DNA of 64,000 nucleotides, taken from the NCBI RefSeq assembly GCF_007827465.1, contig NZ_VISL01000001.1:2313001-2377000 (forward strand), given 5' to 3'. The translations under genes were made by a program, and so were the position numbers. Shown piece after piece: positions 1,330-61,965 of this stretch (position 1 is the stretch's first letter; every line of letters begins with the position of its first letter). A model generated the notes under the pieces. That model made no database searches and had not been told where the DNA came from. It was given only the letters and a program-made list of their open reading frames with translations. Origin of the DNA: Dokdonia sp. Hel_I_53 (GTDB taxonomy: Bacteria; Bacteroidota; Bacteroidia; Flavobacteriales; Flavobacteriaceae).

Positions 1330-1343
1330 GCTTTCGCGAAAGC
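1330..1343. repeat. 14-bp palindrome, copy 1
   Basis: This is an exact GCTTTCGCGAAAGC, extended symmetrically to 20 bp (1327-1346). It sits in the divergent gap between the metallophosphatase and the flavin oxidoreductase, upstream of a TATCTTTG -7 element at 1374-1381. Confidence 0.97.
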
Positions 1344-1373
1344 GTAGTCTCCTCAAATTTGATCAATACAGTT

Positions 1374-1381
1374 TATCTTTG
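1374..1381 (+). promoter_or_regulatory. Candidate -7 element of the oxidoreductase gene
   Basis: TATCTTTG matches the flavobacterial -7 consensus TAnnTTTG and lies 33 bases before the ATG at 1414. A TTG at 1359-1361 is too close to serve as a standard -33 element, so the promoter is only partly supported. Confidence 0.5.
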
Positions 1382-1413
1382 AGTTAAAAATTAAATCACT
1401 TGATACTAGAGAA

Positions 1414-2427
1414 ATGGAAGTAGGTATAGATAGTTTTGCAATAGCACCCAAAAATAAAAGTGAAAGCGCAGCAGACTCCTTAAGGTTATTGATAGAGAGA
1501 ATTGTTCATGCAGACAAAGTAGGTATAGATAGTTTTGGGATAGGAGAACATCACAGAAGTGATTTTTTGGATCAATCACCAGCTATGATCTTGGCGGCTG
1601 CAGCCGCTATGACAAAGCGTATTAAACTTACAAGTGCAGTTACCGTTTTAAGTGCTGCAGATCCAGTGAGAGTCTTTCAAAATTATGCTACGTTAGACCT
1701 CCTTTCTGGTGGAAGAGCAGAAATTGTCGCAGGTAGAGGCTCTTTTACAGATGCTTTTCCATTGTTTGGATTTAATCAAGCAGATTACAATGCTGTCTTC
1801 AAAGAAAAGTTAGAGCTCTTATTAAAGTTAAGGGAACAAGAAATAATAACTTGGTCTGGAAAATTTAGACCAGCACTTCATAATCAACCTGTTTTTCCAA
1901 GACCACTACAAAAGAAGCTTCCCATTTGGTTAGGGGTAGGAGGAACCCCAGAATCATTTGTAAGAGCTGGTGAGTTAGGTTTACCACTTATGATTGCAGT
2001 GATAGGTGGTCAGACACATCGATTTGCACCATTAGTAGATTTATATAGACAAGCAGGCATAAAGTCTGGACACAGTCCAGAAGATTTAAAAGTAGGCTTG
2101 CACTCCCTGGGCTATGTAGCAGAAACAACAGAGGATGCTATCAAAGACTACTTTCCAGGATATCAAGAATTATTTACAAAAATAGGTCTAGAAAGAGGAT
2201 TTCCAGCACCTACTAGACAAAGTTTTGATGCTCAAAACAGCGTTCCACAGGGTGCTTTACTAGTAGGTAGTCCAGAAGATGTAGCTAAAAAAATTCTTCA
2301 CCATAGCGAGGCTTTAGGAGGAATTTCAAAAGTCACGTTTCAAATGGATGTTGGTATTCCGCATGATAAATTAAAAAAGGCTTTAGAGCTTATAGCAACA
2401 AAAGTTAAGCCTCTTTTGAATTCTTAA
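1414..2427 (+). CDS. LLM-class flavin-dependent oxidoreductase (luciferase-like)
   Basis: This 337-residue TIM-barrel protein belongs to the bacterial luciferase-like monooxygenase family, whose members use reduced FMN or F420. Visible family features are GEHHR at 44-48 and the AEIVAGRGSF segment at 102-111 on the flavin-binding side of the barrel. The length is normal. It stands alone, so the substrate is unknown. Bacteroidota members are usually annotated only as LLM-class oxidoreductases. An F420 requirement is unlikely because flavobacteria generally lack F420, but that is inference. Confidence 0.85.
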   Translation: MEVGIDSFAIAPKNKSESAADSLRLLIERIVHADKVGIDSFGIGEHHRSDFLDQSPAMILAAAAAMTKRIKLTSAVTVLSAADPVRVFQNYATLDLLSGGRAEIVAGRGSFTDAFPLFGFNQADYNAVFKEKLELLLKLREQEIITWSGKFRPALHNQPVFPRPLQKKLPIWLGVGGTPESFVRAGELGLPLMIAVIGGQTHRFAPLVDLYRQAGIKSGHSPEDLKVGLHSLGYVAETTEDAIKDYFPGYQELFTKIGLERGFPAPTRQSFDAQNSVPQGALLVGSPEDVAKKILHHSEALGGISKVTFQMDVGIPHDKLKKALELIATKVKPLLNS

Positions 2428-2451
2428 TATGTTATGTTTGACCTTCAAAAA

Positions 2452-2485
2452 AAACAGCCATCAGTCCCCCAACTGATAGCTGTTT
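2452..2485 (-). terminator. Hairpin terminator of the OmpA/PD40 gene
   Basis: Two 14-base arms (2452-2465 and 2472-2485) pair with a single mismatch around a C-rich loop. Read leftward, the stem is followed by a run of eight T, so it terminates the minus-strand gene ending at 2519. It may also stop the plus-strand oxidoreductase transcript, less well. Confidence 0.8.
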
Positions 2486-2518
2486 CCTTAACAATGATTT
2501 ATTACAATTGTTAAGAAT

Positions 2519-4141
2519 CTATTCTTTGATTACGATAAATTCTACTCGTCTGTTTAATTCATTTTGAGCCGCAGAGCAGGGTGAACATTTGATAAGTAAT
2601 TCTTCTTCTCCGTATCCTTGAGAACTCATTCTTTCTTTTGAAATTCCTTTATTAAAGAGATATTTTAATGCAGATGCTGCCCTCCTCATAGAAAGTTTTT
2701 TGTTGTAGATAGCACTACCTTGTATATCTGTATGCGCTTTAATGTGGATTTTTATAGAAGGGTTATTATTTAATGTTGCTACAATTGAATTGAGCGTAAT
2801 AGTAGAAATAGGCTTAATCCTTGCACTGTTTGTATCAAAAAGTATATTTTCTATTTCAATAATAGTCTCTTTCTCATTCTCTATAATTGCTGCAGGTATT
2901 GCTTCTAATGCAATATCATTAACAAAAGTTTTATTTACTTGTGCAGAAGTGTTTATAGAACTTGTTGCTTGCTCAAAACCATCTTTATAAACAATAACTG
3001 TATAATTTAAGAAAGTATCTACAGGAAACTCATAGGCGCCAGTTGTAGTAGAAGTAGTATTTGCTACTTCTTCTCCATACTCGTCTATAAGTACAACTTT
3101 TGCGTTTTGAAGTGCTATTTGTGTTTCACTATCATATATTTTTCCTGAAACAAATACATTTACAGGCAACTCTCTAACTTTATATATATCATAACCACCC
3201 TCGCCACCTTCTCGATTAGAAGTTAAATAGCCAACAGTTGGCGTGGCTTCAATATATGCGATATCATCTGCTTTAGAGTTAATTGTATTTCCTAAATTTC
3301 TAGTAGCGACAAAACCTCTAGCTGTTTTTCTCGATCTAAATACATCAAAGCCTCCTTGAGAGTCATGACCTTTTGACGAGAAATATAAATATTTACCATC
3401 TATAGATGTACGCGGAAACTTCTCGTCTAAAACAGTATTTACACTACCTTCAACACGCTCTACTGGACTTCTAAAACGACCCATTTCTTGTATAGAAATA
3501 TCTTTTTCTAGGGCGATTCTAAAAATATCAAATCCTCCGATAGCTTCTGGGCGGTTAGAGGCAAAGTATAGCCAATCACCATTTTTTGAGATATGTGGGT
3601 TTTCAATTGAAAAGTCTCCATTAATAGCTAATGAAACAATATTTATCCATTCACCCTCTCTTTTTGGATTCATATCTGCGCGATAGAGTTCAAAACTTTG
3701 ACTATCAGACTTCTTACTCTTAGTAAAATATAAAGTATTCCCATCCTCTGTAAAAGTTACGCTTCCTAAATTTTCATACTTGTTGAGTATAGATGAGAAT
3801 AGTTGTGGAGTTCTTAAATCATATTCGTAGGTAATATCAGAACAATATAATTTAGTAAAGGGTTCGCCTGTGTTAGGATCTTTTTTGGCTAAAGCACCTA
3901 TTTTTCTAGCAGAAAAAGAAATAAATTTTTCTCTAAAAAAACCTACTCCATAGTCGGCATATTTAGTATTTATACCCGTAGTAAAGGTTTCAAATTTAAA
4001 ACCATTGTCGCTGTAAACTTCTTTTTCATTTTTTGTTTTACTATAACCTGTATCAACAACAGTGTTTGTGTTCTGAGAAAAAATATTGAGGCTTGAGAAT
4101 AAGCACAGGCTCAATAAGCAGTAAAAAGATAGTTGTTTCAT
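2519..4141 (-). CDS. OmpA-family lipid-independent envelope protein with PD40 propeller
   Basis: This 540-residue protein is probably periplasmic or outer-membrane associated and anchors to peptidoglycan. Residues 1-22 are a signal peptide ending before Gln23. Residues about 95-325 contain TolB/PD40-type blades with repeated [LY]YF-S-N/K-R and GG-[FY]-D-[IV]-[FY] patterns (134-143, 189-208, 250-269, 303-321). Residues about 330-405 form a carboxypeptidase-regulatory-like domain. Residues 433-540 are an OmpA C-terminal domain ending in the NRRVEF signature. The domain order resembles PorE of the type IX secretion system but the N-terminal TPR repeats of PorE are missing, so I do not call it porE. 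The gene stands alone with its own terminator. Confidence 0.88.
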   Translation of the reverse strand: MKQLSFYCLLSLCLFSSLNIFSQNTNTVVDTGYSKTKNEKEVYSDNGFKFETFTTGINTKYADYGVGFFREKFISFSARKIGALAKKDPNTGEPFTKLYCSDITYEYDLRTPQLFSSILNKYENLGSVTFTEDGNTLYFTKSKKSDSQSFELYRADMNPKREGEWINIVSLAINGDFSIENPHISKNGDWLYFASNRPEAIGGFDIFRIALEKDISIQEMGRFRSPVERVEGSVNTVLDEKFPRTSIDGKYLYFSSKGHDSQGGFDVFRSRKTARGFVATRNLGNTINSKADDIAYIEATPTVGYLTSNREGGEGGYDIYKVRELPVNVFVSGKIYDSETQIALQNAKVVLIDEYGEEVANTTSTTTGAYEFPVDTFLNYTVIVYKDGFEQATSSINTSAQVNKTFVNDIALEAIPAAIIENEKETIIEIENILFDTNSARIKPISTITLNSIVATLNNNPSIKIHIKAHTDIQGSAIYNKKLSMRRAASALKYLFNKGISKERMSSQGYGEEELLIKCSPCSAAQNELNRRVEFIVIKE

Positions 4142-4303
4142 GGGGGATAAATTCGACTGGTTAAAGCCTCCAACAATCGAAAATAATGCTCTAAACTACT
4201 TGATTAAAAGAATTTTAAATTTTTTAGACAAGATGAGTTGTTTTGTCGGTGAGACGCTGTATTCTACATGAAGAATGAACTTAATTTTATGTAGGGAGTA
4301 GCG

Positions 4304-5821
4304 TTAGGATTTTTCTAAGCTTATTAAATCTTCTATAAAGTCTCTTTTATTAGATAGCCTAGGAATTTTATGCTGTCCTCCTAACTTGTTTTTTGAACTT
4401 AACCAGTCATAAAAGAGATTCTTTCTCGCTACATGTATTGTGGGCGCATTGAGCGTAGTATTATTAAAACGTTTTGCTTGATAATCACTGTTTACTTCTT
4501 GTAGCGCTAGATCGAGTTGTTGGTTAAAAGTAGTTATGTCTTTTGGGTCATTTTTAAATTCGATCATCCACTCATGAGCGCCCTTTTCTCTACCTTCCAT
4601 AAAGATAGGAGCAGCAGTATAATCTTTTATTTCTGCGCCTGTGGCAAGCGATGCTATTTGCAATGCTTTTTCTGCATTTTCAATTATAAGTTCTTCCCCA
4701 AAAACATTAATATGATGTTTTGTTCTGCCGCTTACTTTAATTTTATAGGGGCTGAGAGAAGTAAATCTTACAGTATCTCCTATTTTGTACCTCCATAACC
4801 CAGCGTTTGTAGTGATGATTACCGCATAATTTTTATCTAATGCTACTTCATTTAAAGGAATAACTTTTTCATCTAAAGTTCCGTAAGTATCCATCGGTAT
4901 AAATTCATAAAAAATACCGTAATCGAGCATTAATAATAGTTCCTTAGAATCATTTTGATTTTGAATTGCAAAAAAACCTTCTGAGGCATTATATATTTCG
5001 TAATACTTAAATGAGTTTGAGGGGAGTATCTTCTTGTATTGATCAATGTAGGGGTCAAAACTTACGCCACCATGAAAATAGACTTCAAGATGAGGCCAGA
5101 TTTCAAATAAACTAGTTTTACCTGTGGTTTCTAAAACATTATTCAACAATACAAGCATCCATGATGGAACTCCCGCAAGGCTGGTTACATCTTGTTGTAT
5201 GGTTTCGTTTACGATGGCTTGCATTTTTATTTCCCAATCATCAAGAAGCGAAACATCACTAGTAGGAGTGCTGCTAAATTCTGCCCAAAAAGGCATATTA
5301 TCAATTAAAATTGCAGAAAGGTCACCATAAACAGTTCCCTTATCTTCATATAACTTCTTACTGCCACCTAGTCGTAAACCTTTGCCAGAAAATAATTGAG
5401 ACCCTTCATTATTATTAAGATACATACATAGTAAATCCTTACTTGCTGCATAATGACAATCTTCTAGCGACTCTGTACTAACAGGTATATATTTACTACG
5501 AGCATTTGTTGTCCCACTACTTTGAGCAAACCATTTAATAGGTGATGGCCATAAAATATTTGCTTCCCCACGGCGACTCCGTTCAATAAACTGATGGTTT
5601 TCTTCGTAAGATGTGACAGGCACCCTTTCGGCAAATTCTCGGTAGGTTTTAATAGAAGCAAAATCATATTTTCTCCCTATTTCTGTATCCTTAGCTTTAT
5701 CTAGAAGCTTTATGCGCAATTCTTCTTGAACCTCTGCAGGGTACTTCATAAAAAGCTCCATCTGATGGATACGCTTTTTGAGAAACCAAGAAGCTATAGA
5801 ATGGACTAAAGGGATCGCCAT
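4304..5821 (-). CDS. GH3 auxin-responsive-promoter family protein (acyl-adenylating enzyme)
   Basis: This 505-residue protein belongs to the GH3 branch of the ANL adenylate-forming superfamily. Plant members conjugate amino acids to jasmonate, auxin or other acyl acids after adenylation. The nucleotide-binding loop SSGTTNARSKYIP is at 101-113. The later YNASEGFFA segment, W-R-Y-K-I-G-D and SGRTKHHINVFGEEL are also typical. Length is normal for bacterial GH3 proteins, which are common in Bacteroidota but mostly uncharacterised. It is a single gene, divergent from the DUF2797 gene across a copy of the palindrome. The substrate acid and the acceptor are unknown. Confidence 0.87.
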   Translation of the reverse strand: MAIPLVHSIASWFLKKRIHQMELFMKYPAEVQEELRIKLLDKAKDTEIGRKYDFASIKTYREFAERVPVTSYEENHQFIERSRRGEANILWPSPIKWFAQSSGTTNARSKYIPVSTESLEDCHYAASKDLLCMYLNNNEGSQLFSGKGLRLGGSKKLYEDKGTVYGDLSAILIDNMPFWAEFSSTPTSDVSLLDDWEIKMQAIVNETIQQDVTSLAGVPSWMLVLLNNVLETTGKTSLFEIWPHLEVYFHGGVSFDPYIDQYKKILPSNSFKYYEIYNASEGFFAIQNQNDSKELLLMLDYGIFYEFIPMDTYGTLDEKVIPLNEVALDKNYAVIITTNAGLWRYKIGDTVRFTSLSPYKIKVSGRTKHHINVFGEELIIENAEKALQIASLATGAEIKDYTAAPIFMEGREKGAHEWMIEFKNDPKDITTFNQQLDLALQEVNSDYQAKRFNNTTLNAPTIHVARKNLFYDWLSSKNKLGGQHKIPRLSNKRDFIEDLISLEKS

Positions 5822-5861
5822 AAAGTTGCTATATTTACCGTAGTTTTTATGTTAAGATTAT

Positions 5862-5875
5862 GCTTTCGCGAAAGC
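5862..5875. repeat. 14-bp palindrome, copy 2
   Basis: Exact GCTTTCGCGAAAGC in the divergent gap between the GH3 and DUF2797 genes. The flanks are AT-rich and do not extend the symmetry beyond one base. Confidence 0.97.
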
Positions 5876-5920
5876 TAAATTAACCTTTTTCCTCGCATCT
5901 TAAAACCAAAATTTTCATAA

Positions 5921-6715: not shown

Positions 6716-6725
6716 ATGAGGTTAA

Positions 6726-7352: not shown

Positions 7353-7377
7353 AAGTTAAATAGACAGCAAAATTAAT

Positions 7378-7385
7378 CTTTCTGC
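7378..7385 (-). promoter_or_regulatory. Candidate -7 element of the LysE gene
   Basis: On the minus strand this reads TAATTTTG, matching TAnnTTTG, 26 bases before the ATG at 7352. No -33 TTG is seen at the right distance. Confidence 0.4.
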
Positions 7386-7467
7386 TCTGTTTTTGTTTTA
7401 ATTTATAATTTCATTAGTGTTTTTTATAAAAATCTAAAATATTTACAGACATCACAGGACTTAGTTT

Positions 7468-7500
7468 TTGACTATATAGCGCGATAAAAGCCTATCTTTG
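7468..7500 (+). promoter_or_regulatory. Promoter of der
   Basis: A TTG (7468-7470) and TATCTTTG (7493-7500) separated by 22 bases match the flavobacterial sigma-A promoter TTG-N17-23-TAnnTTTG. Transcription would start about 13 bases before the der ATG, giving a very short leader. Confidence 0.8.
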
Positions 7501-7520
7501 CACACCTTAAAAAAATAATA

Positions 7521-8825: not shown

Positions 8826-8859
8826 TAGATTGGCAAAGCGTTGATACTGATTAATTTCC

Positions 8860-8873
8860 GCTTTCGCGAAAGC
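8860..8873. repeat. 14-bp palindrome, copy 3
   Basis: Exact GCTTTCGCGAAAGC 35 bases after the der stop codon and before the terminator hairpin at 8919-8958, so it is probably within the der 3' untranslated region. Confidence 0.97.
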
Positions 8874-8918
8874 ATGCATTGCTCCGTTAAAATACTTACA
8901 TAAATGTATAGCAAAATA

Positions 8919-8958: not shown

Positions 8959-8990
8959 CTGCTTTGTTATATGAACACATTCAGAACTTT

Positions 8991-9311: not shown

Positions 9312-9316
9312 AAAAA

Positions 9317-12097: not shown

Positions 12098-12103
12098 GAT
12101 TAC

Positions 12104-12117
12104 GCTTTCGCGAAAGC
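12104..12117. repeat. 14-bp palindrome, copy 4
   Basis: Exact core with a 20-bp perfect palindrome at 12101-12120, starting 3 bases after the stop codon of the outer-membrane protein gene and upstream of the patatin gene. Confidence 0.97.
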
Positions 12118-15815: not shown

Positions 15816-15829
15816 GCTTTCGCGAAAGC
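15816..15829. repeat. 14-bp palindrome, copy 5
   Basis: Exact core within TACGCTTTCGCGAAAGCGTA (15813-15832). It lies 12 bases downstream of the queuosine-transporter stop, in the gap before the co-directional AsmA gene. Confidence 0.97.
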
Positions 15830-21146: not shown

Positions 21147-22502
21147 ATGAAACACCTATTATTTTTAATGTTGTTAATGAGTTTCGCTTTCGCGAAAGCG
21201 CAAACTCCTCGATCCTTCACTATAGAAGAAGCAGTTAGCTTTGCCTTAGATAGTAACTATACGGCTATCAACGCACGTAGAGATATTGCAAAAGCAATTA
21301 AGAAAAAGTGGGAAACTACAGCGACGGGACTACCTCAAGTAAACGCTGTTTTAGACTATAACTACCAGATAAGACAGCCTACGCAGCTTATACCTGCAGA
21401 ATTTTCAGGAGGAGAAGCAGGTACGTTTATACCAGTGGTTTTTGGCACACAGCAAAATGCCACCGCAACTGCAACTCTTACACAATTAATATTTGATGGA
21501 TCCTATTTAGTAGGTCTTCAGGCAGCAAAAACATTTTTAGAATTTTCAGAGAATGCAAATGAGAAGACACAACTAGAAGTACGCAAAGGTGTTATTAATG
21601 CATATGGGGCAGTTCTATTAGCCGAAGAGAATGTGAGTATTCTCGATAGAAATATAGCCACATTACAAGAGAATGTGCGCGAGACTCGTATTATTTTTGA
21701 GAATGGATTTGCCGAAGAAGAAGATGTAGAGCAGCTACAAATTACATTACTTTCTCTCGAGAATCAACGAGCCAATTCTCAACGAATGGTAACCATTGCA
21801 CGACAGATGTTTAATGTAGCAATAGGACTTGATATAGAAGAGCCTATCGTGTTAGTAGAATCTCTAGAAAGCTTAGCTATTCCTGCTGTAGGTTTATTAA
21901 ATAATAGTGTAAACTTAGATCAAAATGTTGATTATAAGATAAGTAATAATTTAACCGAACAACGTGAGCTAGAACTAAAGTTAGAAAAGAGTAAAGCATT
22001 GCCAACTTTAGGGGCATTTATCAATTTAGGCACCTTTGCAGGAAGAAATGAATTTAACTTCTTTGATAGTGATAGAAAATGGTTTGCTTCTTCTATTACA
22101 GGTTTTTCTCTTAACATCCCTATTTTTAGTAGTGGAATGCGCAATGCTCGTACTGCGCAGGCAGAGATAGCCCTACAGCAAGCTCAAACAGATCGCAAGC
22201 AAACCGCACAAGAAATTTACTTGGCATACGCTTCTGCAAAAAGTGATCATGAATTAGCCATTGATAATTATACGACTGCTCAAAAAAATTTAAGACTCGC
22301 AGAGCGTATAGAAAATAAAAATCAAACAAAATTTAAGGAAGGGATAAGCAGCAGTTTTGATCTAAGACAAGCGCAAACGCAACTGTACCAAGTACAACAA
22401 GAATTATTACAGTCTATGTATCAAATGATAACGACAAAGGCAAGTTTAGAAACAATTTTAAATGTTCCTAATTATCGCAAAGATCAGTCACCTAGCAAAT
22501 AA
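21147..22502 (+). CDS. TolC-family outer-membrane efflux channel
   Basis: This 451-residue protein is the outer-membrane exit duct of a tripartite pump. It has the two internally repeated alpha-helical hairpin regions of the OEP family (about 25-215 and 240-445). The signal peptide is residues 1-18, with cleavage expected after A-K-A18 and before Gln19. Residues 14-18, AFAKA, are encoded by an exact copy of the 14-bp palindrome plus one base (21186-21199). It follows tetR with no gap and precedes the membrane-fusion gene by 53 bases. Confidence 0.93.
   Translation: MKHLLFLMLLMSFAFAKAQTPRSFTIEEAVSFALDSNYTAINARRDIAKAIKKKWETTATGLPQVNAVLDYNYQIRQPTQLIPAEFSGGEAGTFIPVVFGTQQNATATATLTQLIFDGSYLVGLQAAKTFLEFSENANEKTQLEVRKGVINAYGAVLLAEENVSILDRNIATLQENVRETRIIFENGFAEEEDVEQLQITLLSLENQRANSQRMVTIARQMFNVAIGLDIEEPIVLVESLESLAIPAVGLLNNSVNLDQNVDYKISNNLTEQRELELKLEKSKALPTLGAFINLGTFAGRNEFNFFDSDRKWFASSITGFSLNIPIFSSGMRNARTAQAEIALQQAQTDRKQTAQEIYLAYASAKSDHELAIDNYTTAQKNLRLAERIENKNQTKFKEGISSSFDLRQAQTQLYQVQQELLQSMYQMITTKASLETILNVPNYRKDQSPSK
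21186..21199. repeat. 14-bp palindrome, copy 6, in the tolC-like signal peptide
   Basis: This exact GCTTTCGCGAAAGC is read as GCT-TTC-GCG-AAA-GC(G), A-F-A-K-A. It supplies residues 14-18, the C-region and cleavage box of the signal peptide. Confidence 0.97.
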
Positions 22503-22555: not shown

Positions 22556-23725
22556 ATGAAAAATATTTTAGCCGTATTAATAATGCTTGTTCTTGCCTCC
22601 TGTGGAGATAATACTAGTGAGCAATCTGTAGAAAATGTAATTGCATCTGGATCAATAGATGAGATGGAAGCAAAAAAAACAGCTTTAAAAGATGAAGTAA
22701 GCTTACTTAATGAACAAATAGCAACACTAAACAGTGCAATTCAACAAAAGAATCCGCGTGATTCAAAGCCAGTGTTAATAACCACAAAAATGGTAAAGGA
22801 TACTATTTTCAATCACTATGTTGAGGTTCAAGGTAATGTGGAAACTAAGAAAAATGTACTTGTATATCCAGAGTATCAAGGTACTTTATCCCGTGTGTAT
22901 GTTAAAGAGGGACAGCGTGTTTCAAAAGGTCAAACACTAGCAAGAATAGATGATGGCGGTTTAAGTAGTCAAGTTTCACAAGCAGAGGCTCAAGCTGCAC
23001 TAGCAAAAACGACTTTCGAGAGGCAACAAAGACTTTGGGAGCAAAAAATAGGTTCAGAAATACAATATTTGCAAGCGAAGACACAATATGAATCTGCACA
23101 AAGCCTGCTTAGGCAGGCTAAGAGTCAGTTAGGTAAAACTACGGTTAGTGCTCCTTTTTCTGGAGTAATAGACGAGGTAGTAACAGATCAGGGTACGGTG
23201 GTAGCTCCAGGTGTTGCTCTTTTTAGAATTGTCAACTTAGATGATATGTATGTAACTGCAGACATTCCTGAGAGTTATTTACCTACCGTTACAAAAGGTA
23301 AAAAAGTAATGGTAGCATTTCCAGTTTTAGGAGAAAGCGTAGAGGCAACGGTGCGTCAAACGGGTAATTATATCAACCCAGCAAACAGAAGCTTTACTGT
23401 AGAAGTGGATGTGCCAAATAAAAATGGAAGAATCAAACCTAACTTAACAGCAAGACTTTCTATCAATGATTATACTTCAGAGAATGCGATTCTAGTTCCA
23501 TTAAATGTGATTAATGAAAATGCAGATGGTGAACAATATGTGTATATCGCTTCCGCGAAAGCGAATGAAAATAAAATGGTAGCTCAGCAAAAAATTATTA
23601 CTACTGGAAAATCTCAAGGAGACCGTATTGAGATTTTATCTGGAATAAACGCAGGAGATAAGATTATTGTAGAGGGCGCGAGATCTGTAAAAGATAATCA
23701 AGAAGTAAAAATCTTAACATACTAG
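22556..23725 (+). CDS. RND efflux membrane-fusion lipoprotein (AcrA/HlyD type)
   Basis: This 389-residue periplasmic adaptor joins the RND pump to the TolC-like channel. The lipobox LASC puts the lipidated Cys at residue 16. A coiled coil (about 37-67) is followed by the biotinyl-lipoyl-like half (VYVKEGQRVSKGQTLARID), an alpha-hairpin (about 138-185), the second lipoyl half (TTVSAPFSGVIDEVV) and beta-barrel and membrane-proximal domains. A one-mismatch palindrome copy (23549-23562) codes A-S-A-K. The stop codon is four bases from the pump gene, indicating tight coupling. Confidence 0.93.
   Translation: MKNILAVLIMLVLASCGDNTSEQSVENVIASGSIDEMEAKKTALKDEVSLLNEQIATLNSAIQQKNPRDSKPVLITTKMVKDTIFNHYVEVQGNVETKKNVLVYPEYQGTLSRVYVKEGQRVSKGQTLARIDDGGLSSQVSQAEAQAALAKTTFERQQRLWEQKIGSEIQYLQAKTQYESAQSLLRQAKSQLGKTTVSAPFSGVIDEVVTDQGTVVAPGVALFRIVNLDDMYVTADIPESYLPTVTKGKKVMVAFPVLGESVEATVRQTGNYINPANRSFTVEVDVPNKNGRIKPNLTARLSINDYTSENAILVPLNVINENADGEQYVYIASAKANENKMVAQQKIITTGKSQGDRIEILSGINAGDKIIVEGARSVKDNQEVKILTY
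23549..23562. repeat. Imperfect palindrome copy inside the membrane-fusion gene
   Basis: GCTTCCGCGAAAGC differs by one base from the 14-mer. It is read A-S-A-K, i.e. the A-F-A-K frame with Phe changed to Ser. Confidence 0.75.
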
Positions 23726-23729
23726 AGCA

Positions 23730-26700
23730 ATGACAGATAAGAAAAAGAAAAATGTAGACAAGGAGTTTGCCATTTCTAGCTGGGCAATTGATAATCCAAC
23801 GATTATTTACGTTCTAATGGCATTGTTTCTAGCCTTGGGAATGGGCGCATACCTAGGCATGGCACGCGAGAACTTCCCAGAGATAAATGAAACTAAGATA
23901 TACATATCTGCTCCCTACCCTGGTAATACAGCAGAGGATATTGAGCGGCTCATTATTGATCCCCTAGAAGATAAACTTCAAAATTTATCTGGGGTAGTAG
24001 AAGTGTTATCGACCTCTCAAGAAGACTATGGTATTATCACTATAGAATTTAATGAGAATGTAGATGTTCAGGTCGCAAAACAACGGGTTAAGGATGAGGT
24101 AGATTCTGAAACTGCAAATGAAGACTGGCCTACCTTTAATAACGCAAAAGTAGAGCCTAATGTATTTGACCTTAGTATGTCTGAGGAAATTCCCATTCTT
24201 AATGTCAATGTATCTGGTAATTATCCAGTTATTAAACTCAAAGAATTTGCAGAGTACTTACAAGATGAAATAGAGAGTCTTAAAGAAATTAAAGAGGCAA
24301 CAATACGGGGAGCTCAAGATAGGGAAGTTGAAGTGGCTGTAGATGTATATAAAATGATTGCTGCTCGTGTAAGTTTTGATGATATTTTACGGGCTATTGG
24401 TAATGAAAACATGACACTTTCTGCAGGGAATTTGGTAAGTAGCGGCCAGCGTCGTAACATTAGAGTCATAGGAGAAATCCAGAGTCCTGATGAACTTGAG
24501 AACTTTGTGATCAAGTCAGAACGGGGTGCAGTTTATCTTAAGGATATTGCAGAGATACATTTTACAGAAGAAGATAAAACTACGTATGCGCGTGATCTCA
24601 CACTTTACGAGGGAGAGTCTGTTAATAATGATGAGATAAGTGAGACGGTAGTAATGCTTGATGTAAAGAAACGCTCTGGTGAAAATATGATTGAGGCAGT
24701 AACTCAAATCAACGAGATCATTGAAAAAGCAACTACAGAAGTCTTTCCTCCAGATGTAACCGTACGTACCGCAAACGACCAAAGTGCAAAGACAGAAAAT
24801 CAAGTAAATGACTTGGTAAACAATATCATTTTTGGAATTATCTTGGTTGTAGGCGTCTTAATGTTTTTCCTAGGTTTTAAAAATGCACTCTTTGTTGGTT
24901 TTGCTATCCCAATGTCTATGTTTATGAGTTTTATGATTCTCAACCTCATGGGCTATACAATGAACACGATGATTCTTTTTGCACTTATTATGGGACTGGG
25001 AATGCTGGTAGATAACGGTATTGTAGTAGTAGAAAATGTCTACCGCTTAATGGATGAAGAAGGAATGAGCCGAATCGAAGCTGCAAAAAAAGGAATAGGA
25101 GAAATCGCTTTCCCTATTATAATATCAACCTTAACAACTGTTGCAGCTTTTGTGCCATTAGGTTTATGGCCAGGTATTATGGGTCAATTTATGATTTACT
25201 TTCCTATAACCTTATCAGTTGTTCTAGGATCTTCGTTATTTGTAGCAATCTTCATAAACTCTATGCTAGTTTCTCAATTTATGAAGACTGAGGAGAAACC
25301 GCTTTCGCGAAAGTTTTTAATTCGCACCACTTTAATAATGATACCTATTGGGTTAATGATTTTATTCTTAGGTGGAAGTATAAGAGGTTTTGGGAGTTTA
25401 GTATTAGTGACAATTGCCTTTATGTGGATTTACAAGTATGCGTTGAAAGGTGCAGCAGATGTTTTCCAAAAAAGGTTCCTTACATGGTTAGAAAATAAAT
25501 ATAAAGCTTTCTTAGGATGGTCAATTAGGGGGTGGAAACCCGTTGGATTTGTAGGCGGAATTTTTTTATTATTAATTCTAACGTTCATGGCTTTTGGAGG
25601 TTCAGTAAGTGCAGGAAGAACAGCCATCGAATTTTTCCCAGATAATAAGCCTAATCAAATTATTGTATACATAGAATATCCGGAAGGAACCGCTATTGCA
25701 AAAACAAATGCAATTACAAAGGAAATTGAAGACCGTGTATTTCAGGTATTTAATGATCAAGAATATCTTGAAGGAGGAGATTATAATGCTTTGGTAGAAA
25801 CTTCTGTTTCGCAGGTAGGAGAAGGAGCAGGAAACCCACAAACTGACGGGGGGAGTGCTGCAGAAATGCCACACAAAGCAAAAATCACGGCCACCATGCG
25901 GGAGTACAAATATCGTAATGAGGCAGATAGTGAAGAACTGCGATTTAAAGTGCAAGAAGCGGTAAGAGGTGTTTATCCAGGAGTTGTCATTACTGTAGAA
26001 AAAGATGCTGCAGGACCACCTCAAGGCTATCCAGTAAACATAGAGCTCGAAGGTAAGAATTATGAAGAGCTTATCGTGGCTGCAGAAAAAATGCGGAATT
26101 ACATTAACAGTAGAAATGTTCCAGGTGTAGATGAGCTTAAGATTAATGTAAATAGAGGAAAGCCAGGAACAGAAGTGATTGTTGATCGGGAGAAGGCAGG
26201 TGAGTTAGGTATTGCAACAGGTCAAGTAGGGATGCAGTTAAGACGCTCTATATTTGGAGATAAAGCTGGAGTCTATAAGAAAGACGGTGAAGATTATGAT
26301 ATTTATGTACGCTTCAATGAAGAGCAGCGCTATGACAAGTCAGCACTGTTTAATCAAAATATTACTTTTAGGGATCCTGCTACTGGGCAAATCAAAGAAG
26401 TACCTATTGCTGCAGTAACCAAGACAAAAAACACTTCATCTTTTAGCGCAATTAAGCATAGAGACTCAAAACGCGTAGTAACAGTATATTCTAATTTAGC
26501 AGCTGGATATACAGATGCTGGAGTCGTAGTGGCTGCGGTACAAGAAGAAATGAAAAACTTTGAGGGTATGCCTAAGGATATCAAAGTAAACTACACAGGC
26601 CAAATAGAAGAGCAACAAAAGGAGATGAATTTCTTAGTAAGCGCATTTTTTGGAGGGCTTGCTCTAATTTTCTTTCTTCTAATTTTTCAGTTTAGCTCGA

Positions 26701-27341: not shown

Positions 27342-27355
27342 GCTTTCGCGAAAGC
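27342..27355. repeat. 14-bp palindrome, copy 7
   Basis: Exact core in the convergent gap between the RND and SusD genes, lying between their two separate terminators. It is therefore probably outside both main transcripts. Confidence 0.97.
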
Positions 27356-31856: not shown

Positions 31857-31870
31857 GCTTTCGCGAAAGC
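31857..31870. repeat. 14-bp palindrome, copy 8
   Basis: Exact core with the symmetry extended to 22 bp (31853-31874), the longest in the window. It lies in the divergent gap between the SusC gene and mutS. Confidence 0.97.
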
Positions 31871-34767: not shown

Positions 34768-34781
34768 GCTTTCGCGAAAGC
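34768..34781. repeat. 14-bp palindrome, copy 9, between two tRNA genes
   Basis: Exact GCTTTCGCGAAAGC in the 62-base spacer between tRNA-Gly and tRNA-Leu. It is therefore transcribed as part of the tRNA precursor, where it could fold as a short hairpin. Confidence 0.97.
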
Positions 34782-37607: not shown

Positions 37608-38837
37608 ATGCAGAGCCTCTATTCTTTCGTAATCATACTTGCACAATTATTGTTGCCAATTGTAGGATTTTTTAATAAAAAAATCAGAAAGTCTGTGATA
37701 GGAAGAAAAAATACAATGGCAACACTCAGGAGTGCTTTAGAAAAAGGTCCGCCTGTGATGTGGATGCATGCAGCCTCTCTAGGTGAATATGAGCAAGGTC
37801 TTCCAGTGATGAAAGCTTTACAACAACGATTTCCTAATCATCAGTGGGTGGTTAGTTTTTTCTCTCCTTCTGGATATGAAATAAAAAAGGATAACGCTTT
37901 CGCGAAAGCAACCGTCTATCTACCTATTGATACACCTGCTAATGCTTGTGAGTTTCTAGAAATCTTATCTCCAGATATGGCTTTATTTGTAAAATATGAA
38001 TTTTGGCCAAATTATCTAAATGAATTAAAACGCCAAAATGTACGCACCTTTTTGATATCTGGAGTATTTAGAGAGAGTCAACCATTTTTTAGATGGTACG
38101 GCAAGTGGATGAAAGAGTCACTAAAAAGTTTTGAATATTTCTTCCTACAAGATAAAGCCTCTTCGGAAGCTCTAAAACAGTTAGGTTTTACAAATTATGC
38201 TGTAAGTGGGGATACCCGTTTTGATAGAGTAAGTCATCAAATTGAGATGGACAACACTTTAGATTTTATCGAGACATTTAAGCAAGGTAAACTTTGTGTC
38301 GTTTGCGGTAGTACATGGTCAGAAGACGAGCAAGTATTGCTTTCATTTATAAATGATGCTTCTTCTGATATTAAGTTTATTATAGCTCCACACGAGATAA
38401 AACCTGATAAAATTGCAGATTTAGAAAGTAGATTACTTGTTAAATCAACACGTTATTCTCAATACACTGAAGAAAATTTAAAGAAGGCTCAGGTTTTGAT
38501 TATCGATACAATCGGACTACTTGCAAAAATTTACAGTTATGCAGATATTGCTTATGTGGGTGGGGCTATGGGAACAACAGGTTTACATAATATATTAGAG
38601 CCTGCCACTTTTGGCACACCGATAGTTATTGGCTCAAATTTTAAAAATTTTCCAGAGGCAAAACGCTTACAGCAATTAGCTGGGCTGTATTCGGTGTCTA
38701 ATCAGGAGGAGTTAAATAAAATACTCACTAAATTAACCACTGATATAAATTTCAGAAATCAAACTGGGATGATCGCTGGACATTTCATCAACAGCAATAC
38801 TGGAGCCACTAAGGCTGTATCAAATTATTTTGAATAA
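37608..38837 (+). CDS. kdtA: 3-deoxy-D-manno-octulosonic acid transferase
   Basis: KdtA (WaaA) adds Kdo to lipid A at the inner face of the inner membrane. The 409 residues start with a membrane anchor (about 4-22). The GT-30 N-terminal domain carries HAASLGEYEQ with catalytic Glu60, and the GT-B C-terminal domain has GSTWSEDE, APHE and YVGGAMGTTGLHNILEPA. Length is normal. An exact palindrome copy codes A97-F-A-K100 in the loop before VYLPIDTP, a place where family members vary. It stands alone, divergent from the DegT gene. Confidence 0.94.
   Translation: MQSLYSFVIILAQLLLPIVGFFNKKIRKSVIGRKNTMATLRSALEKGPPVMWMHAASLGEYEQGLPVMKALQQRFPNHQWVVSFFSPSGYEIKKDNAFAKATVYLPIDTPANACEFLEILSPDMALFVKYEFWPNYLNELKRQNVRTFLISGVFRESQPFFRWYGKWMKESLKSFEYFFLQDKASSEALKQLGFTNYAVSGDTRFDRVSHQIEMDNTLDFIETFKQGKLCVVCGSTWSEDEQVLLSFINDASSDIKFIIAPHEIKPDKIADLESRLLVKSTRYSQYTEENLKKAQVLIIDTIGLLAKIYSYADIAYVGGAMGTTGLHNILEPATFGTPIVIGSNFKNFPEAKRLQQLAGLYSVSNQEELNKILTKLTTDINFRNQTGMIAGHFINSNTGATKAVSNYFE
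37896..37909. repeat. 14-bp palindrome, copy 10, inside kdtA
   Basis: Exact GCTTTCGCGAAAGC, read A-F-A-K at residues 97-100, the same frame as in the tolC-like gene. Confidence 0.97.
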
Positions 38838-38867: not shown

Positions 38868-39521
38868 TTACACAGAAACAGCTTCCCGTAGGTATCTTCT
38901 AAAGGGCAGCATCTCTTGGTAAGCTGTAATAATAGTATCCTCAAAACCTGAAGAAACTACTTGCTTTCGCGTAAGCGTTAGTTCAACAGCAAATGTTTTC
39001 TGCCTAAGTAAATTTATATGAGGATGTTTCATTGAGTACCCTTTTGGCGCAGTAATTAATTGATGGTCTGTATACAGCCCTCCAAATAACTTCTTAAATG
39101 ATTCTTTCTCTAGAATAGCTTTAAGATTTTCCCCATTATAATCAATTGCTTCACGAATACTATTTAAAATTTCTTTCTTGGGTCTCCAGTAGCCACCTGC
39201 AATTAAGTTCTGGTGTAGGCCAATTTCTATATAAAAATCACCTTGCTTTGTTTTTTGATCAAGACCTGCTCCAAAATGATCTTTATAAATAGGTTTTGTG
39301 GGATGAAATAACAAATTATTATTAATTCTATTGATAGCTTTCTTTCCAGGTGTATCAAAGTAGTCTTTATCAATCTTTAGGAACTTGTCATTTAGGTGGT
39401 CTAGCCATTTAATGTATAAGTCACGTACATGGTGATATTCTTTACGGTGGGTATCCATCCATTCCTTAGAATTATTTTTTTGCAATGTCTCTAAAAAATT
39501 GTACAACAACTCGAAATCCAT
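38868..39521 (-). CDS. DUF2461 domain protein
   Basis: This 217-residue cytoplasmic protein matches the DUF2461 (TIGR02453) family. Typical segments are NNSKEWMDTHRKEY near the N-terminus, RINNNLLFHPTKPIYKDHFG and FYIEIGLHQNLIAGGYWRP. No biochemical function is established to my knowledge. Length is normal. A one-mismatch palindrome copy (38963-38976) codes L-T-R-K. It is convergent with kdtA and divergent from the small lipoprotein genes. Confidence 0.85.
   Translation of the reverse strand: MDFELLYNFLETLQKNNSKEWMDTHRKEYHHVRDLYIKWLDHLNDKFLKIDKDYFDTPGKKAINRINNNLLFHPTKPIYKDHFGAGLDQKTKQGDFYIEIGLHQNLIAGGYWRPKKEILNSIREAIDYNGENLKAILEKESFKKLFGGLYTDHQLITAPKGYSMKHPHINLLRQKTFAVELTLTRKQVVSSGFEDTIITAYQEMLPFRRYLREAVSV
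38963..38976. repeat. Imperfect palindrome copy inside the DUF2461 gene
   Basis: GCTTTCGCGTAAGC has one mismatch, read L-T-R-K on the coding strand (the L-S-R-K frame with Ser changed to Thr). Confidence 0.75.
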
Positions 39522-42024: not shown

Positions 42025-42038
42025 GCTTTCGCGAAAGC
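42025..42038. repeat. 14-bp palindrome, copy 11
   Basis: Exact core in the gap between folA and fabD (both minus strand), with the perfect symmetry extended to 22 bp (42021-42042) through TTCC/GGAA flanks instead of the usual TTAC/GTAA. Confidence 0.97.
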
Positions 42039-44496: not shown

Positions 44497-44510
44497 GCTT
44501 TCGCGAAAGC
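44497..44510. repeat. 14-bp palindrome, copy 12
   Basis: Exact core in the 50-base spacer between egtD and the DUF427 gene, inside what looks like one operon. Confidence 0.97.
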
Positions 44511-45513: not shown

Positions 45514-46683
45514 TTACTTTTTCACAAGGCGAAGTCCAGTAAATTGCCACCTCAAGCTTGTTTGAAAAAAATTGCGGTAAGTGTGTCGTGTATGTTTATT
45601 GGGTGTGGCAACAGATCCTCCTCTTAGCACTTTTTGGTTAACCATAAACTTACCATTATATTCTCCTAACGCTCCTGGTGCTTTAGTGTAATTTGGGTAG
45701 GGTAGGTAAGCACTTTCTGTCCACTCCCATCTATCACCCCAATTAAAATGTTTATTTGCAATTTCCCACTCAAACTCTGTAGGTAAACGCATTTCCTTCC
45801 ACTCTGCATAAGCAAATGCTTCAAAATAAGAGATATGAGATACAGAAGCCTTTAAGTCAATTCTCTCAAGAGCATTATCTAAAGTGTATTGATACCACTC
45901 ACCATTGACTTTATGCCAATACATAGGTGCAGTAATAGCATTATTCTGAACCCAATCCCATCCCTCTGCATGCCAAAGAAGGGTTGATGTGTAACCACCA
46001 GCATCTATAAAATCGATCCATTCACCGTTAGTAACGAGTCGTGTAGATATTTCAAAATTTTGAATATAGACTTTATGTCTACTTAGCTCATTGTCATAAC
46101 AAAAGCCTGCAGTTGCATGTCCTATATCATAAACTCCTTCCTTGATATTAATAAATGCGGGTGTAGAAGTTTTTTCGCTTTCGCGAAAGAGTATATCTCC
46201 CTCATATTTTGGCATTAAAGGGTTGTTCCCTAAAATATATTTAATGTCTGTAATGAGTAATTCTTGATGTTGTTTTTCGTGGTGGATGCCTATGGTGAGT
46301 AATTTTTTTACTTGTTCTGTTATTGGTTCTTCTAGTAGTTCCTCTATAGATTGCGTAACATAATCTCTATAGGAATATACTTGTGCTACTGTGGGTCTTG
46401 AGAGATTACCACGATCTGTGCGAACCACTCTTTTTCCTACGCTCTCGTAGTAACTATTAAACACAAAAGCAAAATCATCACTAAATAATTTATAACCTTG
46501 CTTGTGAGGTTTGAGAATAAACTCTTCAAAAAACCAAGTTGTATGACCTAAATGCCACTTAGGTGGAGAAACGTCAACTACAGGTTGGACTACATAATCT
46601 TCTACTTCAAGGGGTTTACAAATTTGCTCAGAATAAGCTCTAGTTTCACTAAAAAAATTAACTATTGTTTGTGTGGTGCTCAT
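45514..46683 (-). CDS. egtB: Ergothioneine-type sulfoxide synthase (EgtB)
   Basis: EgtB is a non-heme iron enzyme that joins hercynine to a thiol (gamma-Glu-Cys or Cys) with oxygen. The 389 residues have an N-terminal DinB-like domain with His44/His47 (KWHLGH) and His135-x3-His139 (HHEKQHQE), the expected iron ligands. The C-terminal formylglycine-generating-enzyme-like domain has LPTEFEWEIA and VLRGGSV. No egtA or egtC gene is nearby, so cysteine may be the direct thiol donor, as in some other bacteria (inference). A one-mismatch palindrome copy (46177-46190) codes F-R-E-S between the domains. Confidence 0.9.
   Translation of the reverse strand: MSTTQTIVNFFSETRAYSEQICKPLEVEDYVVQPVVDVSPPKWHLGHTTWFFEEFILKPHKQGYKLFSDDFAFVFNSYYESVGKRVVRTDRGNLSRPTVAQVYSYRDYVTQSIEELLEEPITEQVKKLLTIGIHHEKQHQELLITDIKYILGNNPLMPKYEGDILFRESEKTSTPAFINIKEGVYDIGHATAGFCYDNELSRHKVYIQNFEISTRLVTNGEWIDFIDAGGYTSTLLWHAEGWDWVQNNAITAPMYWHKVNGEWYQYTLDNALERIDLKASVSHISYFEAFAYAEWKEMRLPTEFEWEIANKHFNWGDRWEWTESAYLPYPNYTKAPGALGEYNGKFMVNQKVLRGGSVATPNKHTRHTYRNFFQTSLRWQFTGLRLVKK
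46177..46190. repeat. Imperfect palindrome copy inside egtB
   Basis: GCTTTCGCGAAAGA, one mismatch, is read F-R-E-S (residues 166-169) on the coding strand, the third possible frame of the repeat. It lies in the linker between the DinB and FGE-like domains. Confidence 0.75.
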
Positions 46684-53051: not shown

Positions 53052-53065
53052 GCTTTCGCGAAAGC
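53052..53065. repeat. 14-bp palindrome, copy 13
   Basis: Exact core in the 117-base spacer between etfB and etfA, 14 bases after the etfB stop codon. Confidence 0.97.
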
Positions 53066-55115: not shown

Positions 55116-55129
55116 GCTTTCGCGAAAGC
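55116..55129. repeat. 14-bp palindrome, copy 14
   Basis: Exact core starting one base after the pdhB stop codon and before its terminator, so it lies within the 3' untranslated region. Confidence 0.97.
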
Positions 55130-57984: not shown

Positions 57985-57998
57985 GCTTTCGCGAAAGC
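57985..57998. repeat. 14-bp palindrome, copy 15
   Basis: Exact core in the predicted 5' leader of ppa, 43 bases before the ATG. Confidence 0.97.
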
Positions 57999-61195: not shown

Positions 61196-61224
61196 CTATT
61201 TTTTCACTTTATTAAACCAATTCT

Positions 61225-61257
61225 AACCGCAAGACTTCCTAGGTCTTGCGGTTTTTT
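61225..61257 (+). terminator. Terminator of hppA
   Basis: AACCGCAAGAC (61225-61235) pairs with GTCTTGCGGTT (61243-61253) around a 7-base loop, followed by a T-run. Confidence 0.92.
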
Positions 61258-61382
61258 ATGCACAACAGTTAGGGTTTAATAAAAGTAACGTATAGCCGTA
61301 AATAAATTAAGGTTAACAAACCTTTACATTCTCTTTAAGGCTTATTAGTATGGTCTATAACTATCTTTAAATAAAAAAAGAT

Positions 61383-61916
61383 ATGATTTTACCTAGAAGC
61401 GAAATGCCAAACTTAGAACTAGAGTTAATAAATGGAACTAATTGGAAATTATCTGACCAAAATCCTGAAAACTTTACACTGCTTACTTTTTATAGAGGAC
61501 TTCATTGCCCAGTTTGCAAAAAGCAGTTAAAAGATCTCACCTCAAAGATTGAAGACTTTACAAAGCGAGGTGTAAACTTAATTGCAATAAGTATGGATTC
61601 AGAAAAGCGTGCAAATAAAGCCTCAGATGAGTGGGAGCTTACCTCACTGCCGCTGGCTTATAATTTACCTGCAGAAAAGGCAAAAGAATTAGGTCTACAT
61701 ATTTCTGAGGCCGTTTCAGATAAAGAACCAGATTTTTTTAGTGAGCCAGCGATGTTTCTTGTGCGTCCAGATGGGACACTGTATTTTTCATCAATCCAAA
61801 CGATGCCTTTTGCAAGGCCTCAATATGAAGATGTTTTAAATGCTATAGATTTTGTTCTCAAAGAAGACTATCCTGCACGTGGAGAGCTTAAAGGTATCCC
61901 AAAAGCAGTGTCATAG
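61383..61916 (+). CDS. Peroxiredoxin-like AhpC/TSA-family protein
   Basis: This 177-residue cytoplasmic protein has the thioredoxin/AhpC-TSA fold. Its active-site segment FYRGLHCPVCKKQL carries a C-x2-C pair (Cys42, Cys45) rather than the T-x2-C of typical peroxiredoxins. LVRPDGTLYFSSIQTMPFARP near the C-terminus is also typical of the family. It probably reduces peroxides or thiols, but the partner is unknown. It is a single gene, with a palindrome copy after it and an App1 gene next. Confidence 0.85.
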   Translation: MILPRSEMPNLELELINGTNWKLSDQNPENFTLLTFYRGLHCPVCKKQLKDLTSKIEDFTKRGVNLIAISMDSEKRANKASDEWELTSLPLAYNLPAEKAKELGLHISEAVSDKEPDFFSEPAMFLVRPDGTLYFSSIQTMPFARPQYEDVLNAIDFVLKEDYPARGELKGIPKAVS

Positions 61917-61951
61917 TATGCAACTAATTTTTAATTAAAATTAATCCATAC

Positions 61952-61965
61952 GCTTTCGCGAAAGC
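61952..61965. repeat. 14-bp palindrome, copy 16
   Basis: Exact core within TACGCTTTCGCGAAAGCGTA (61949-61968), between the peroxiredoxin and App1 genes (both plus strand), 28 bases before the App1 ATG. Confidence 0.97.

What the first reader, a model, noticed from the sequence alone, without database searches (positions are those of the whole stretch)
1330..61965. Dispersed 14-bp palindrome GCTTTCGCGAAAGC, 16 exact copies in 64 kb
Exact copies start at 1330, 5862, 8860, 12104, 15816, 21186, 27342, 31857, 34768, 37896, 42025, 44497, 53052, 55116, 57985 and 61952. A given 14-mer is expected about 0.0002 times in 64 kb, and less in AT-rich DNA. Many copies extend to TACGCTTTCGCGAAAGCGTA. They lie in divergent, convergent and co-directional gaps, within operons, in 5' and 3' untranslated regions and in coding DNA, so they are not explained as terminators or promoters. 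A dense, evenly scattered, sequence-conserved palindrome suggests a DNA-level signal: an uptake sequence, a chromosome-organising site, a global regulator site or a mobile palindromic element. I do not recall a published description.
Basis: partly seen in the sequence, partly recalled or inferred. Interest (0 to 1): 0.88.

Follow-up and report, generated by a model that had tools for sequence, protein, structure and literature searches.

The report
Evenly spaced conserved palindrome across Dokdonia
A 14-letter DNA palindrome is repeated about 700 times at fairly regular distances in this marine bacterium's chromosome and is kept letter for letter by evolution even inside genes, which looks like a signal for recognising or exchanging the cell's own kind of DNA, though its function is not yet known.

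Summary
Of 237 family genera sampled only three are rich. It is not a mobile repeat: at 5-7% divergence 36/38, 36/36 and 61/61 mapped copies are unchanged. In coding copies third codon positions changed 1/89 against 504/1912 alongside, so the DNA itself is selected. Copies avoid each other: 5 of 86 neighbour distances under 1 kb, 23 expected. Each carries, on average, C-poor, G/T-rich 19-base 5' arms on both strands, a symmetric 52-bp site. RAYT, C5 methylase, extra ParB and Rfam RNA do not explain it. Best reading: a self-DNA signal for uptake or recombination, like DUS/USS but palindromic; inferred, not shown. A chromosome-organising or Chi-like site remains possible. Divergence rises with distance from copies in one close pair, replicated, but not in another. 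No open-licence paper holding the sequence was found.

The parts
1330..1343 (.). exact copy, divergent gap, full TAC..GTA extension
5862..5875 (.). exact copy, divergent gap
8860..8873 (.). exact copy, co-directional gap
12104..12117 (.). exact copy, co-directional gap, 6 bp after a stop, full extension
15816..15829 (.). exact copy, co-directional gap upstream of the 877-aa ORF 13115-15748(-), full extension
21186..21199 (.). exact copy inside ORF 21147-22502(+), coding A-F-A-K-A at the end of a signal-peptide-like leader; a copy stands at the aligned place in genome G010 of another genus
27342..27355 (.). exact copy, convergent gap; not shared with G010 in the aligned stretch
31857..31870 (.). 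exact copy, divergent gap, full extension
34768..34781 (.). exact copy in the spacer between two tRNA genes (34645-34728 and 34791-34862, both -)
37896..37909 (.). exact copy inside ORF 37608-38837(+), frame 0
42025..42038 (.). exact copy, co-directional gap
44497..44510 (.). exact copy between genes, 6 bp from the stop end of ORF 44517-45485(-)
53052..53065 (.). exact copy, co-directional gap
55116..55129 (.). exact copy, co-directional gap, 1 bp after a stop
57985..57998 (.). exact copy, co-directional gap
61952..61965 (.). exact copy, co-directional gap, full extension
1311..1362 (.). example of the whole 52-bp site round the first copy: 14-bp core plus 19 bp on each side (on average C-poor to the left, G-poor to the right)
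   Evidence: arm length read from the average base profile of 105 sites: C 0.06 at -19, 0.16 at -20
23549..23562 (.). one-mismatch copy (GCTTCCGCGAAAGC)
25301..25314 (.). one-mismatch copy (GCTTTCGCGAAAGT)
38963..38976 (.). one-mismatch copy (GCTTTCGCGTAAGC)
46177..46190 (.). one-mismatch copy (GCTTTCGCGAAAGA)

Best explanation
The palindrome is a genome-wide self-DNA signal in Dokdonia and two further Flavobacteriaceae genera. A DNA-binding component, most likely of the natural-transformation or recombination route, recognises the 14-bp core with its two 19-bp arms as a 52-bp symmetric site. Fragments that carry a copy are taken up and recombined in preference, so copies arise by point mutation wherever they do little harm, are restored by exchange with relatives, and stop accumulating where a neighbour already lies within 1-2 kb. 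Shown: abundance, strict conservation at the DNA level, dyad symmetry, mutual avoidance, clade restriction. Inferred: a protein reader, uptake or recombination as its task, origin by point mutation, and the drive.
For: Copies avoid each other beyond what gene layout explains: of 86 neighbour distances 0 are under 500 bp (null 14.9) and 5 under 1 kb (null 23.1), CV 0.56 (null 0.97, sd 0.09), 0 of 2000 nulls as extreme. PMC1939737 (passages) cites significant even spacing of uptake sequences and puts 65% (H. influenzae) and 35% (N. gonorrhoeae) of them in ORFs; here 44 of 103. The core is nearly frozen: 2/532, 0/504 and 2/518 substitutions in pairs whose surroundings differ by about 4%, 6% and 12%; third codon positions 1/89 against 504/1912. 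In G149-G164 third-position divergence rises with distance from the nearest copy, 0.091 to 0.239, and again in a fresh 200 kb, 0.126 to 0.294, correlation 0.099 against null 0.000 (sd 0.023), 0 of 400 nulls. Sharp changes of identity between G153 and G164 (97.2% beside 79-88%) suggest exchange between species. ComEC is in 18 of 18 genomes tested, 8 rich and 10 poor, so it allows but does not single out uptake. Riemerella columbina of the same family is transformable and prefers its own DNA, with no signal established (PMC7965970, section 16).
Against: No study of transformation in Dokdonia was among the 25 listed of 359 papers found; no receptor is known to me. DUS/USS are not palindromes (PMC1939737). 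The distance gradient is absent in the G152-G155 pair (correlation 0.009, null 0.002, sd 0.022) and in pairs about 12-21% apart. Without ORFs of 1200 aa or more the first G149-G164 set weakens to 0.056 (3.5% of nulls reach it). The test inside intervals is weak: middle more diverged than edge in 19/26, 19/34 and 16/25 intervals of close comparisons (Wilcoxon p 0.05, 0.23, 0.17) and 13/28 and 8/25 of distant ones. In Neisseria DUS-proximal DNA is slightly more, not less, divergent (PMC2397512, passages). Copy-poor stretches hold foreign-looking and giant genes, which may cause part of the gradient. Copies are no rarer in G149 DNA that does not map to G152 (9 in about 34 kb against 33 in 126 kb). 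Of 25 differing sites only 13 differ by one base; 7 align with gaps and 5 by several bases, and gain and loss were not told apart.
Confidence: 0.45

Rival explanations
1. Chromosome-organising or nucleoid site: a dimeric DNA-binding protein sits on the roughly 700-900 spaced copies and bridges, anchors or positions the chromosome.
For: Dyad-symmetric 52-bp site, strict conservation, spacing more even than chance, copies in each of 20 evenly spread stretches at 1.0-3.5 per 10 kb (origin and terminus were not located). Copy number does not follow genome size: 899 in 3.3 Mb, 903 in 5.5 Mb.
Against: No candidate protein. One ParB_N match (PF02195) in each of 8 rich genomes, so no Noc-like extra copy. 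The TTTC..GAAA half-sites recall parS but with a 2-bp instead of a 4-bp centre (parS is recalled, not tested). Offers no reason for the divergence gradient.
Confidence: 0.25
2. Chi-like recombination site made direction-independent by its palindrome: a RecBCD/AddAB-type nuclease is switched at the core and RecA loads on the G/T-rich strand 5' of it.
For: G/T-rich, C-poor 5' arms on both strands; G-T differences in the arms 1.2-2.3 times those farther out in five pairs, part of which follows from their composition; gradient in G149-G164; one copy per 4.2 kb, near the density of Chi in E. coli as I recall it.
Against: Known Chi sites are 5-8 bp and asymmetric (recalled). The half-site GCGAAAGC occurs only 37 times outside the exact 14-mer in 464 kb (5.4 expected; some belong to one-mismatch copies) against 214 inside it. 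Mutual avoidance is not expected of Chi (inference).
Confidence: 0.13
3. HIP1-like highly iterated palindrome maintained through a cognate methyltransferase.
For: Highly iterated GC-containing palindrome over one clade, as HIP1 in cyanobacteria (PMC4390886, abstract and section list only).
Against: C5 methylases (PF00145) are absent from 5 of 10 rich genomes, G000 among them. A strict 14-bp core with 19-bp arms and even spacing exceeds a methylase site (inference). Adenine and N4 methylases were not searched over the genomes.
Confidence: 0.05
4. Mobile palindromic repeat (REP with RAYT, or a miniature element).
For: Dispersed, denser between genes; the 22-base form folds as a hairpin, -8.3 kcal/mol; Y1_Tnp matches do occur in the three g11 genomes.
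Against: No Y1_Tnp (PF01797) in G000, G149, G152, G155 or G207. Positions are kept between species. 44 of 103 copies lie in reading frames. None of the three gapped cases printed is a clean absence of the unit. Copies avoid each other instead of clustering.
Confidence: 0.03
5. Binding sites of a global transcription regulator, or transcription terminators.
For: 59 of 103 copies are between genes.
Against: 44 of 103 in ORFs; per gap equally common in convergent (12/58), divergent (12/61) and co-directional (35/206) gaps; copies avoid each other; none of the five copies in window 1-20000 is among the 9 terminator-like sites; no Rfam family at the copies.
Confidence: 0.06

Closest known systems
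DUS of Neisseriaceae and USS of Pasteurellaceae (DNA uptake sequences)
   Same: Hundreds of copies of a short sequence in related genera, in genes and more densely between them, conserved at the DNA level, spacing more even than chance.
   Different: A 14-bp palindrome with symmetric C-poor arms, one per 4 kb (DUS about one per 1.1-1.5 kb, PMC2397512 passages), host in Bacteroidota, no competence shown; DUS-near DNA is more, not less, divergent (PMC2397512).
HIP1 of cyanobacteria
   Same: Highly iterated palindrome over a clade.
   Different: Longer, evenly spaced, with arms, no shared C5 methylase.
REP/BIME with RAYT transposases
   Same: Dispersed palindromes, denser between genes.
   Different: No Y1 transposase in 5 of 8 rich genomes, fixed positions, no clustering.
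Chi sites
   Same: Similar density (recalled); G/T-rich strand beside the core.
   Different: Symmetric and 14 bp long; half-site much rarer outside the palindrome than inside.
parS, Noc and MatP sites
   Same: Palindrome with TTTC/GAAA half-sites (recalled for parS and Noc).
   Different: Hundreds of copies over the whole chromosome, 2-bp centre, single ParB.

Membership tests
DNA uptake sequences (DUS/USS) | strong genome-wide over-representation of one short sequence in a clade | tested here: met
   700 copies; 18 of 18 genus mates; 3 of 237 sampled family genera
DNA uptake sequences (DUS/USS) | in ORFs and gaps, denser in gaps, conserved at DNA level | tested here: met
DNA uptake sequences (DUS/USS) | spacing more even than chance | tested here: met
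DNA uptake sequences (DUS/USS) | association with recombination | tested here: inconclusive
   gradient in G149-G164, replicated; absent in G152-G155 and in distant pairs
DNA uptake sequences (DUS/USS) | rare in accessory or foreign DNA | tested here: inconclusive
   one copy, at the edge, in the 20-kb defence-gene stretch L302; but unmapped DNA of G149 is not poorer in copies
DNA uptake sequences (DUS/USS) | promotes uptake in a naturally competent host | not testable with these tools
   ComEC in 18/18 genomes, rich and poor; no assay
HIP1-type iterated palindrome | cognate methyltransferase in all rich genomes | tested here: inconclusive
   not met for C5 methylases: absent in 5 of 10 rich genomes; other classes not searched
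REP/RAYT | RAYT-type (Y1_Tnp) gene in the genome | tested here: not met
   none in 5 of 8 rich genomes
REP or mobile repeat | positional turnover by insertion | tested here: not met
Chi | asymmetric motif active in one orientation | tested here: not met
   perfect palindrome; half-site 37 outside against 214 inside
parS/Noc sites | an extra ParB-type protein for an extra site class | tested here: not met
   one PF02195 match in each of 8 rich genomes
Intrinsic terminators / Rfam RNA | hairpin plus T tract, or a family match | tested here: not met
   Rfam over the whole window; terminator scan of 1-20000 only

The most novel reading that the evidence does not exclude
A palindromic, direction-independent 52-bp self-recognition site, to my knowledge the first in Bacteroidota, read by an unknown protein that steers DNA exchange (or holds the chromosome) in three Flavobacteriaceae genera; copies left in metal-efflux islands mark gene flow between these genera and at least nine others.
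Probability: 0.45. Interest if true: 0.9.

Novelty: new variant of a known kind. Interest (0 to 1): 0.82.

Why it matters
The passages read here name uptake signals only for Pasteurellaceae and Neisseriaceae (PMC1939737); self-preference in a Flavobacteriaceae species has been measured but its signal is not established (PMC7965970, section 16). A strict 14-mer makes that question testable with one PCR fragment with and without the site. If it is instead a chromosome-organising site, it is an exact handle to fish out a new nucleoid protein. Either way the palindrome is a marker for DNA that has lived in these genera.

Tried and rejected
Dialects: one 20-kb stretch from each of 18 poor genomes (two more of the 20 stretches are from rich G207) showed no other repeated 12-mer palindrome. 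Some 8-mers recur 8-12 times in G012, G101 and G118; their printed surroundings show no common longer site and I did not follow them. G231 has gene-like tandem repeats. A 13-mer in G270 looked like a direct-repeat dialect but is a tandem heptamer; in the family it occurs in 39 of 299 genomes, at most 13 times.

Mobile repeat, REP/RAYT, C5 methylase, ParB paralogue, Rfam RNA, terminator: rejected or weakened as listed.

Polarity: left and right arms are equally C-poor and not anticorrelated, so no hidden orientation. Arm pairing: mirrored positions beyond 4 match about as often as base composition gives, so no longer hairpin.

Single origin: a ComEC+ParB tree of 18 genomes joins g1 and g191 (73%) and leaves g11 apart with weak support (47-53%); monophyly of the rich genera is not rejected (p-AU 0.26). 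Five ComEC proteins (G000, G078, G149, G152, G155) came out shorter than their open frames.

Naming by the search for related loci gave only three Gillisia loci. PMC12306157 (REP survey) does not name Dokdonia in its text. PMC7371117 (mobile elements found through DUS distribution) was seen as abstract and section list. The Chi/Bacteroidetes search was seen as a listing.
Full report
The observation. The window holds 16 exact copies of GCTTTCGCGAAAGC at the stated places and six more sites within two mismatches. The genome, one contig of 2.93 Mb, holds 700, one per 4.2 kb. In 464 kb sampled from it (window plus 20 evenly spread 20-kb stretches) it is found 107 times, with 13 one-mismatch forms, while no other 14-bp palindrome of real letters occurs more than twice.

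Where it occurs. All 18 genomes of the genus that were searched have 369-905 copies. The contig lengths of G155, G152 and G153 (3,623,447; 3,389,993; 3,305,093) equal the sizes of Dokdonia sp. Dokd-P16, 4H-3-7-5 and PRO95 in Table 1 of PMC13151707 (first of two parts of the text read), so the genus is very probably Dokdonia; the window's own species was not identified. With the 12-mer core, 397 genomes of 237 genera of the family were searched: only g1 (734, 917), g11 (586, 685, 627) and g191 (445) are rich, every other genome has at most 21. In 296 genomes drawn over the phylum the 14-mer is in 16, and apart from G000 none has more than 4.

Copies elsewhere. I fetched 19 stretches of 13 poor genera, chosen mainly because copies cluster there; they hold 37 copies, and 25 of these, in nine genera, lie in DNA similar to five islands whose genes I looked at. 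Six proteins of these islands are an outer-membrane efflux protein, RND pumps (ACR_tran), a membrane-fusion protein and P-type ATPases, one with heavy-metal domains (Pfam). In the outer-membrane-protein gene two copies stand 933 bp apart in G073, G078, G087 and G101. The same two places carry the palindrome in Dokdonia genomes G151, G152 and G155 and in G010 of g11; G000, G157, G258, G410, G207 and a second G010 gene have one copy each; the G151, G152 and G155 proteins are 95-98% identical to that of G101. The 37 copies show C-poor arms too (0.095 against 0.195). I read these as DNA that acquired its copies in a rich genome and moved on; the direction is an inference.

Anatomy. Of 107 copies 103 could be classed: 44 in ORFs, 35 in co-directional, 12 in convergent and 12 in divergent gaps, while ORFs (own caller, 80 aa or more) cover 87% of the sample. 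Reading 5' to 3' towards the core on either strand, C falls from about 0.18 to about 0.08 and G and T rise, over 19 bases with a sharp edge (C 0.06 at -19, 0.16 at -20). This holds in every class of place and on both strands of coding copies (C 0.071 sense, 0.105 antisense). Next to the core TTAC..GTAA is favoured. The arms are not complementary beyond about four bases. The arms change at about the background rate while C stays rare in them; G-T differences there are 1.2-2.3 times those farther out, partly because G and T are commoner. So composition, not sequence, seems to be kept. The site is thus 52 bp with dyad symmetry. g11 shows the same arms (C 0.063 against 0.168, 19 copies in 80 kb); g191 a weaker form (0.175 against 0.251, 12 exact and 6 one-mismatch copies in 80 kb).

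Conservation. Orthologous stretches of five Dokdonia genomes were compared. Mapped copies unchanged: G149-G164 36/38 and, in a second 200 kb, 61/61; G152-G155 36/36; G153-G155 (12% divergent) 35/37; G149-G153 28/33; G164-G155 29/36; G149-G152 (21%) 24/33; 1 to 9 copies per comparison did not map. The 25 differing sites (pairs overlap, so not independent) are 13 single substitutions, 5 with several, 7 with alignment gaps. Core substitutions were 2/532, 0/504 and 2/518 in three pairs whose surroundings within 300 bp differ by about 4%, 6% and 12%, and 30/462, 34/462 and 26/504 in the others with surroundings at 17-28%. In coding copies third positions changed 1/89 against 504/1912 in the surrounding 150 bp (G153-G155), 7/79 against 750/1596 (G149-G152), 8/84 against 813/1731 (G164-G155), 0/85 against 204/1796 (G152-G155) and 0/79 against 139/1634 (G149-G164). 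Of the two window copies in the stretch aligned with G010 of another genus, the one at 21186 is shared and the one at 27342 is not. The signal is therefore in the DNA, old, and under strong constraint.

Spacing. Within the sampled stretches none of 86 neighbour distances is under 500 bp and 5 are under 1 kb; a null that keeps each stretch's number of coding and non-coding copies gives 14.9 and 23.1; CV 0.556 against 0.974 (sd 0.087), 0 of 2000 nulls as extreme. The first 100 copies of G000 and of G149 give CV 0.71 and 0.74. Copies thus behave as if one per few kilobases were enough.

Exchange. Identity between G153 and G164 or G149 changes between blocks of 95.7-97.2% and blocks of about 77-88%, a sign of recombination between species. 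Third-position divergence in G149-G164 rises with distance from the nearest copy: 0.091 (0-250 bp) to 0.239 (3-5 kb) in the first 160 kb and 0.126 to 0.294 in a fresh 200 kb, correlation 0.099, 0 of 400 shifted nulls. Leaving out ORFs of 1200 aa or more the first set weakens (0.056, reached by 3.5% of nulls) and the second does not (0.101). G152-G155 shows no correlation (0.009), and more distant pairs show no such gradient; G149-G152 is even slightly more diverged near copies. Comparing middle with edges inside the same interval: 19/26, 19/34 and 16/25 intervals in the close comparisons, 13/28 and 8/25 in distant ones. This is suggestive of exchange centred on copies, not proof; copy-poor stretches include a defence-gene island and giant ORFs.

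Candidates tested. ParB_N one per rich genome (8 of 8); ComEC in 18 of 18, rich or poor; Y1 transposase absent from five of eight rich genomes and present in the three of g11; C5 methylase absent from five of ten rich genomes; Rfam finds only two tRNAs in the window. The reader of the site remains unknown.

Interpretation. Strict conservation, tolerance of coding and non-coding places, mutual avoidance, absence of polarity and clade restriction fit a signal that must be present every few kilobases. Uptake signals of Haemophilus and Neisseria are the closest in behaviour (passages of PMC1939737 and PMC2397512; [quoted passage not shown] I therefore put uptake or recombination of self DNA first at 0.45, a chromosome-organising site next at 0.25. 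It works like an uptake sequence in its genomic behaviour; that it is one has not been tested. No paper in the open-licence library holds the 14-mer, the 12-mer or the longer forms searched, and the listings for Flavobacteria, Nonlabens and Dokdonia with palindromes or uptake (20 of 422, 7 of 7, 3 of 3 and 25 of 359 papers listed) showed no description of it by title or opening of abstract.

Noticed in passing
L027-L030, L032, L033, L035-L037, L040, L041, L043 (genomes G012, G054, G073, G074, G078, G087, G101, G111, G144): Metal-efflux islands shared among many Flavobacteriaceae genera carry palindrome copies inside genes, in one gene at the same places as in Dokdonia; the palindrome can serve as a marker of gene flow.
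   Followed up: partly
L302 (G000 contig 391501-411500): A 20-kb stretch with one copy, at its edge, holds AbiEii, Eco57I/MmeI-type methylase, OLD-like and UvrD-like genes next to each other (the last two recall the Gabija pair) and a Zot-domain ATPase (Pfam): a defence or mobile island, probably recent.
   Followed up: partly
L305, L306 (G149): Two long copy-free stretches are filled mostly by giant ORFs of 4431 and 2939 aa.
   Followed up: no
window 21186-21199; L090-L092, L095: Some coding copies read A-F-A-K-A at the end of a signal-peptide-like leader; 22 of 44 coding copies in the 464-kb sample are in the frame that reads A-F-A-K.
   Followed up: partly
G270 contig 1 near 513291: Tandem array of a heptamer (AGCGAAA), with two further short arrays in the same genome.
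   Followed up: yes
G149/G153/G164 stretches: Mosaic identity with sharp edges between Dokdonia species, and gene-internal tandem repeats of about 456 and 1050 bp (offsets).
   Followed up: partly
G207 (g191): Rich genome at about 46% GC with fewer exact copies, relatively more one-mismatch forms and weaker arms: possibly a decaying or incipient state of the same system.
   Followed up: partly
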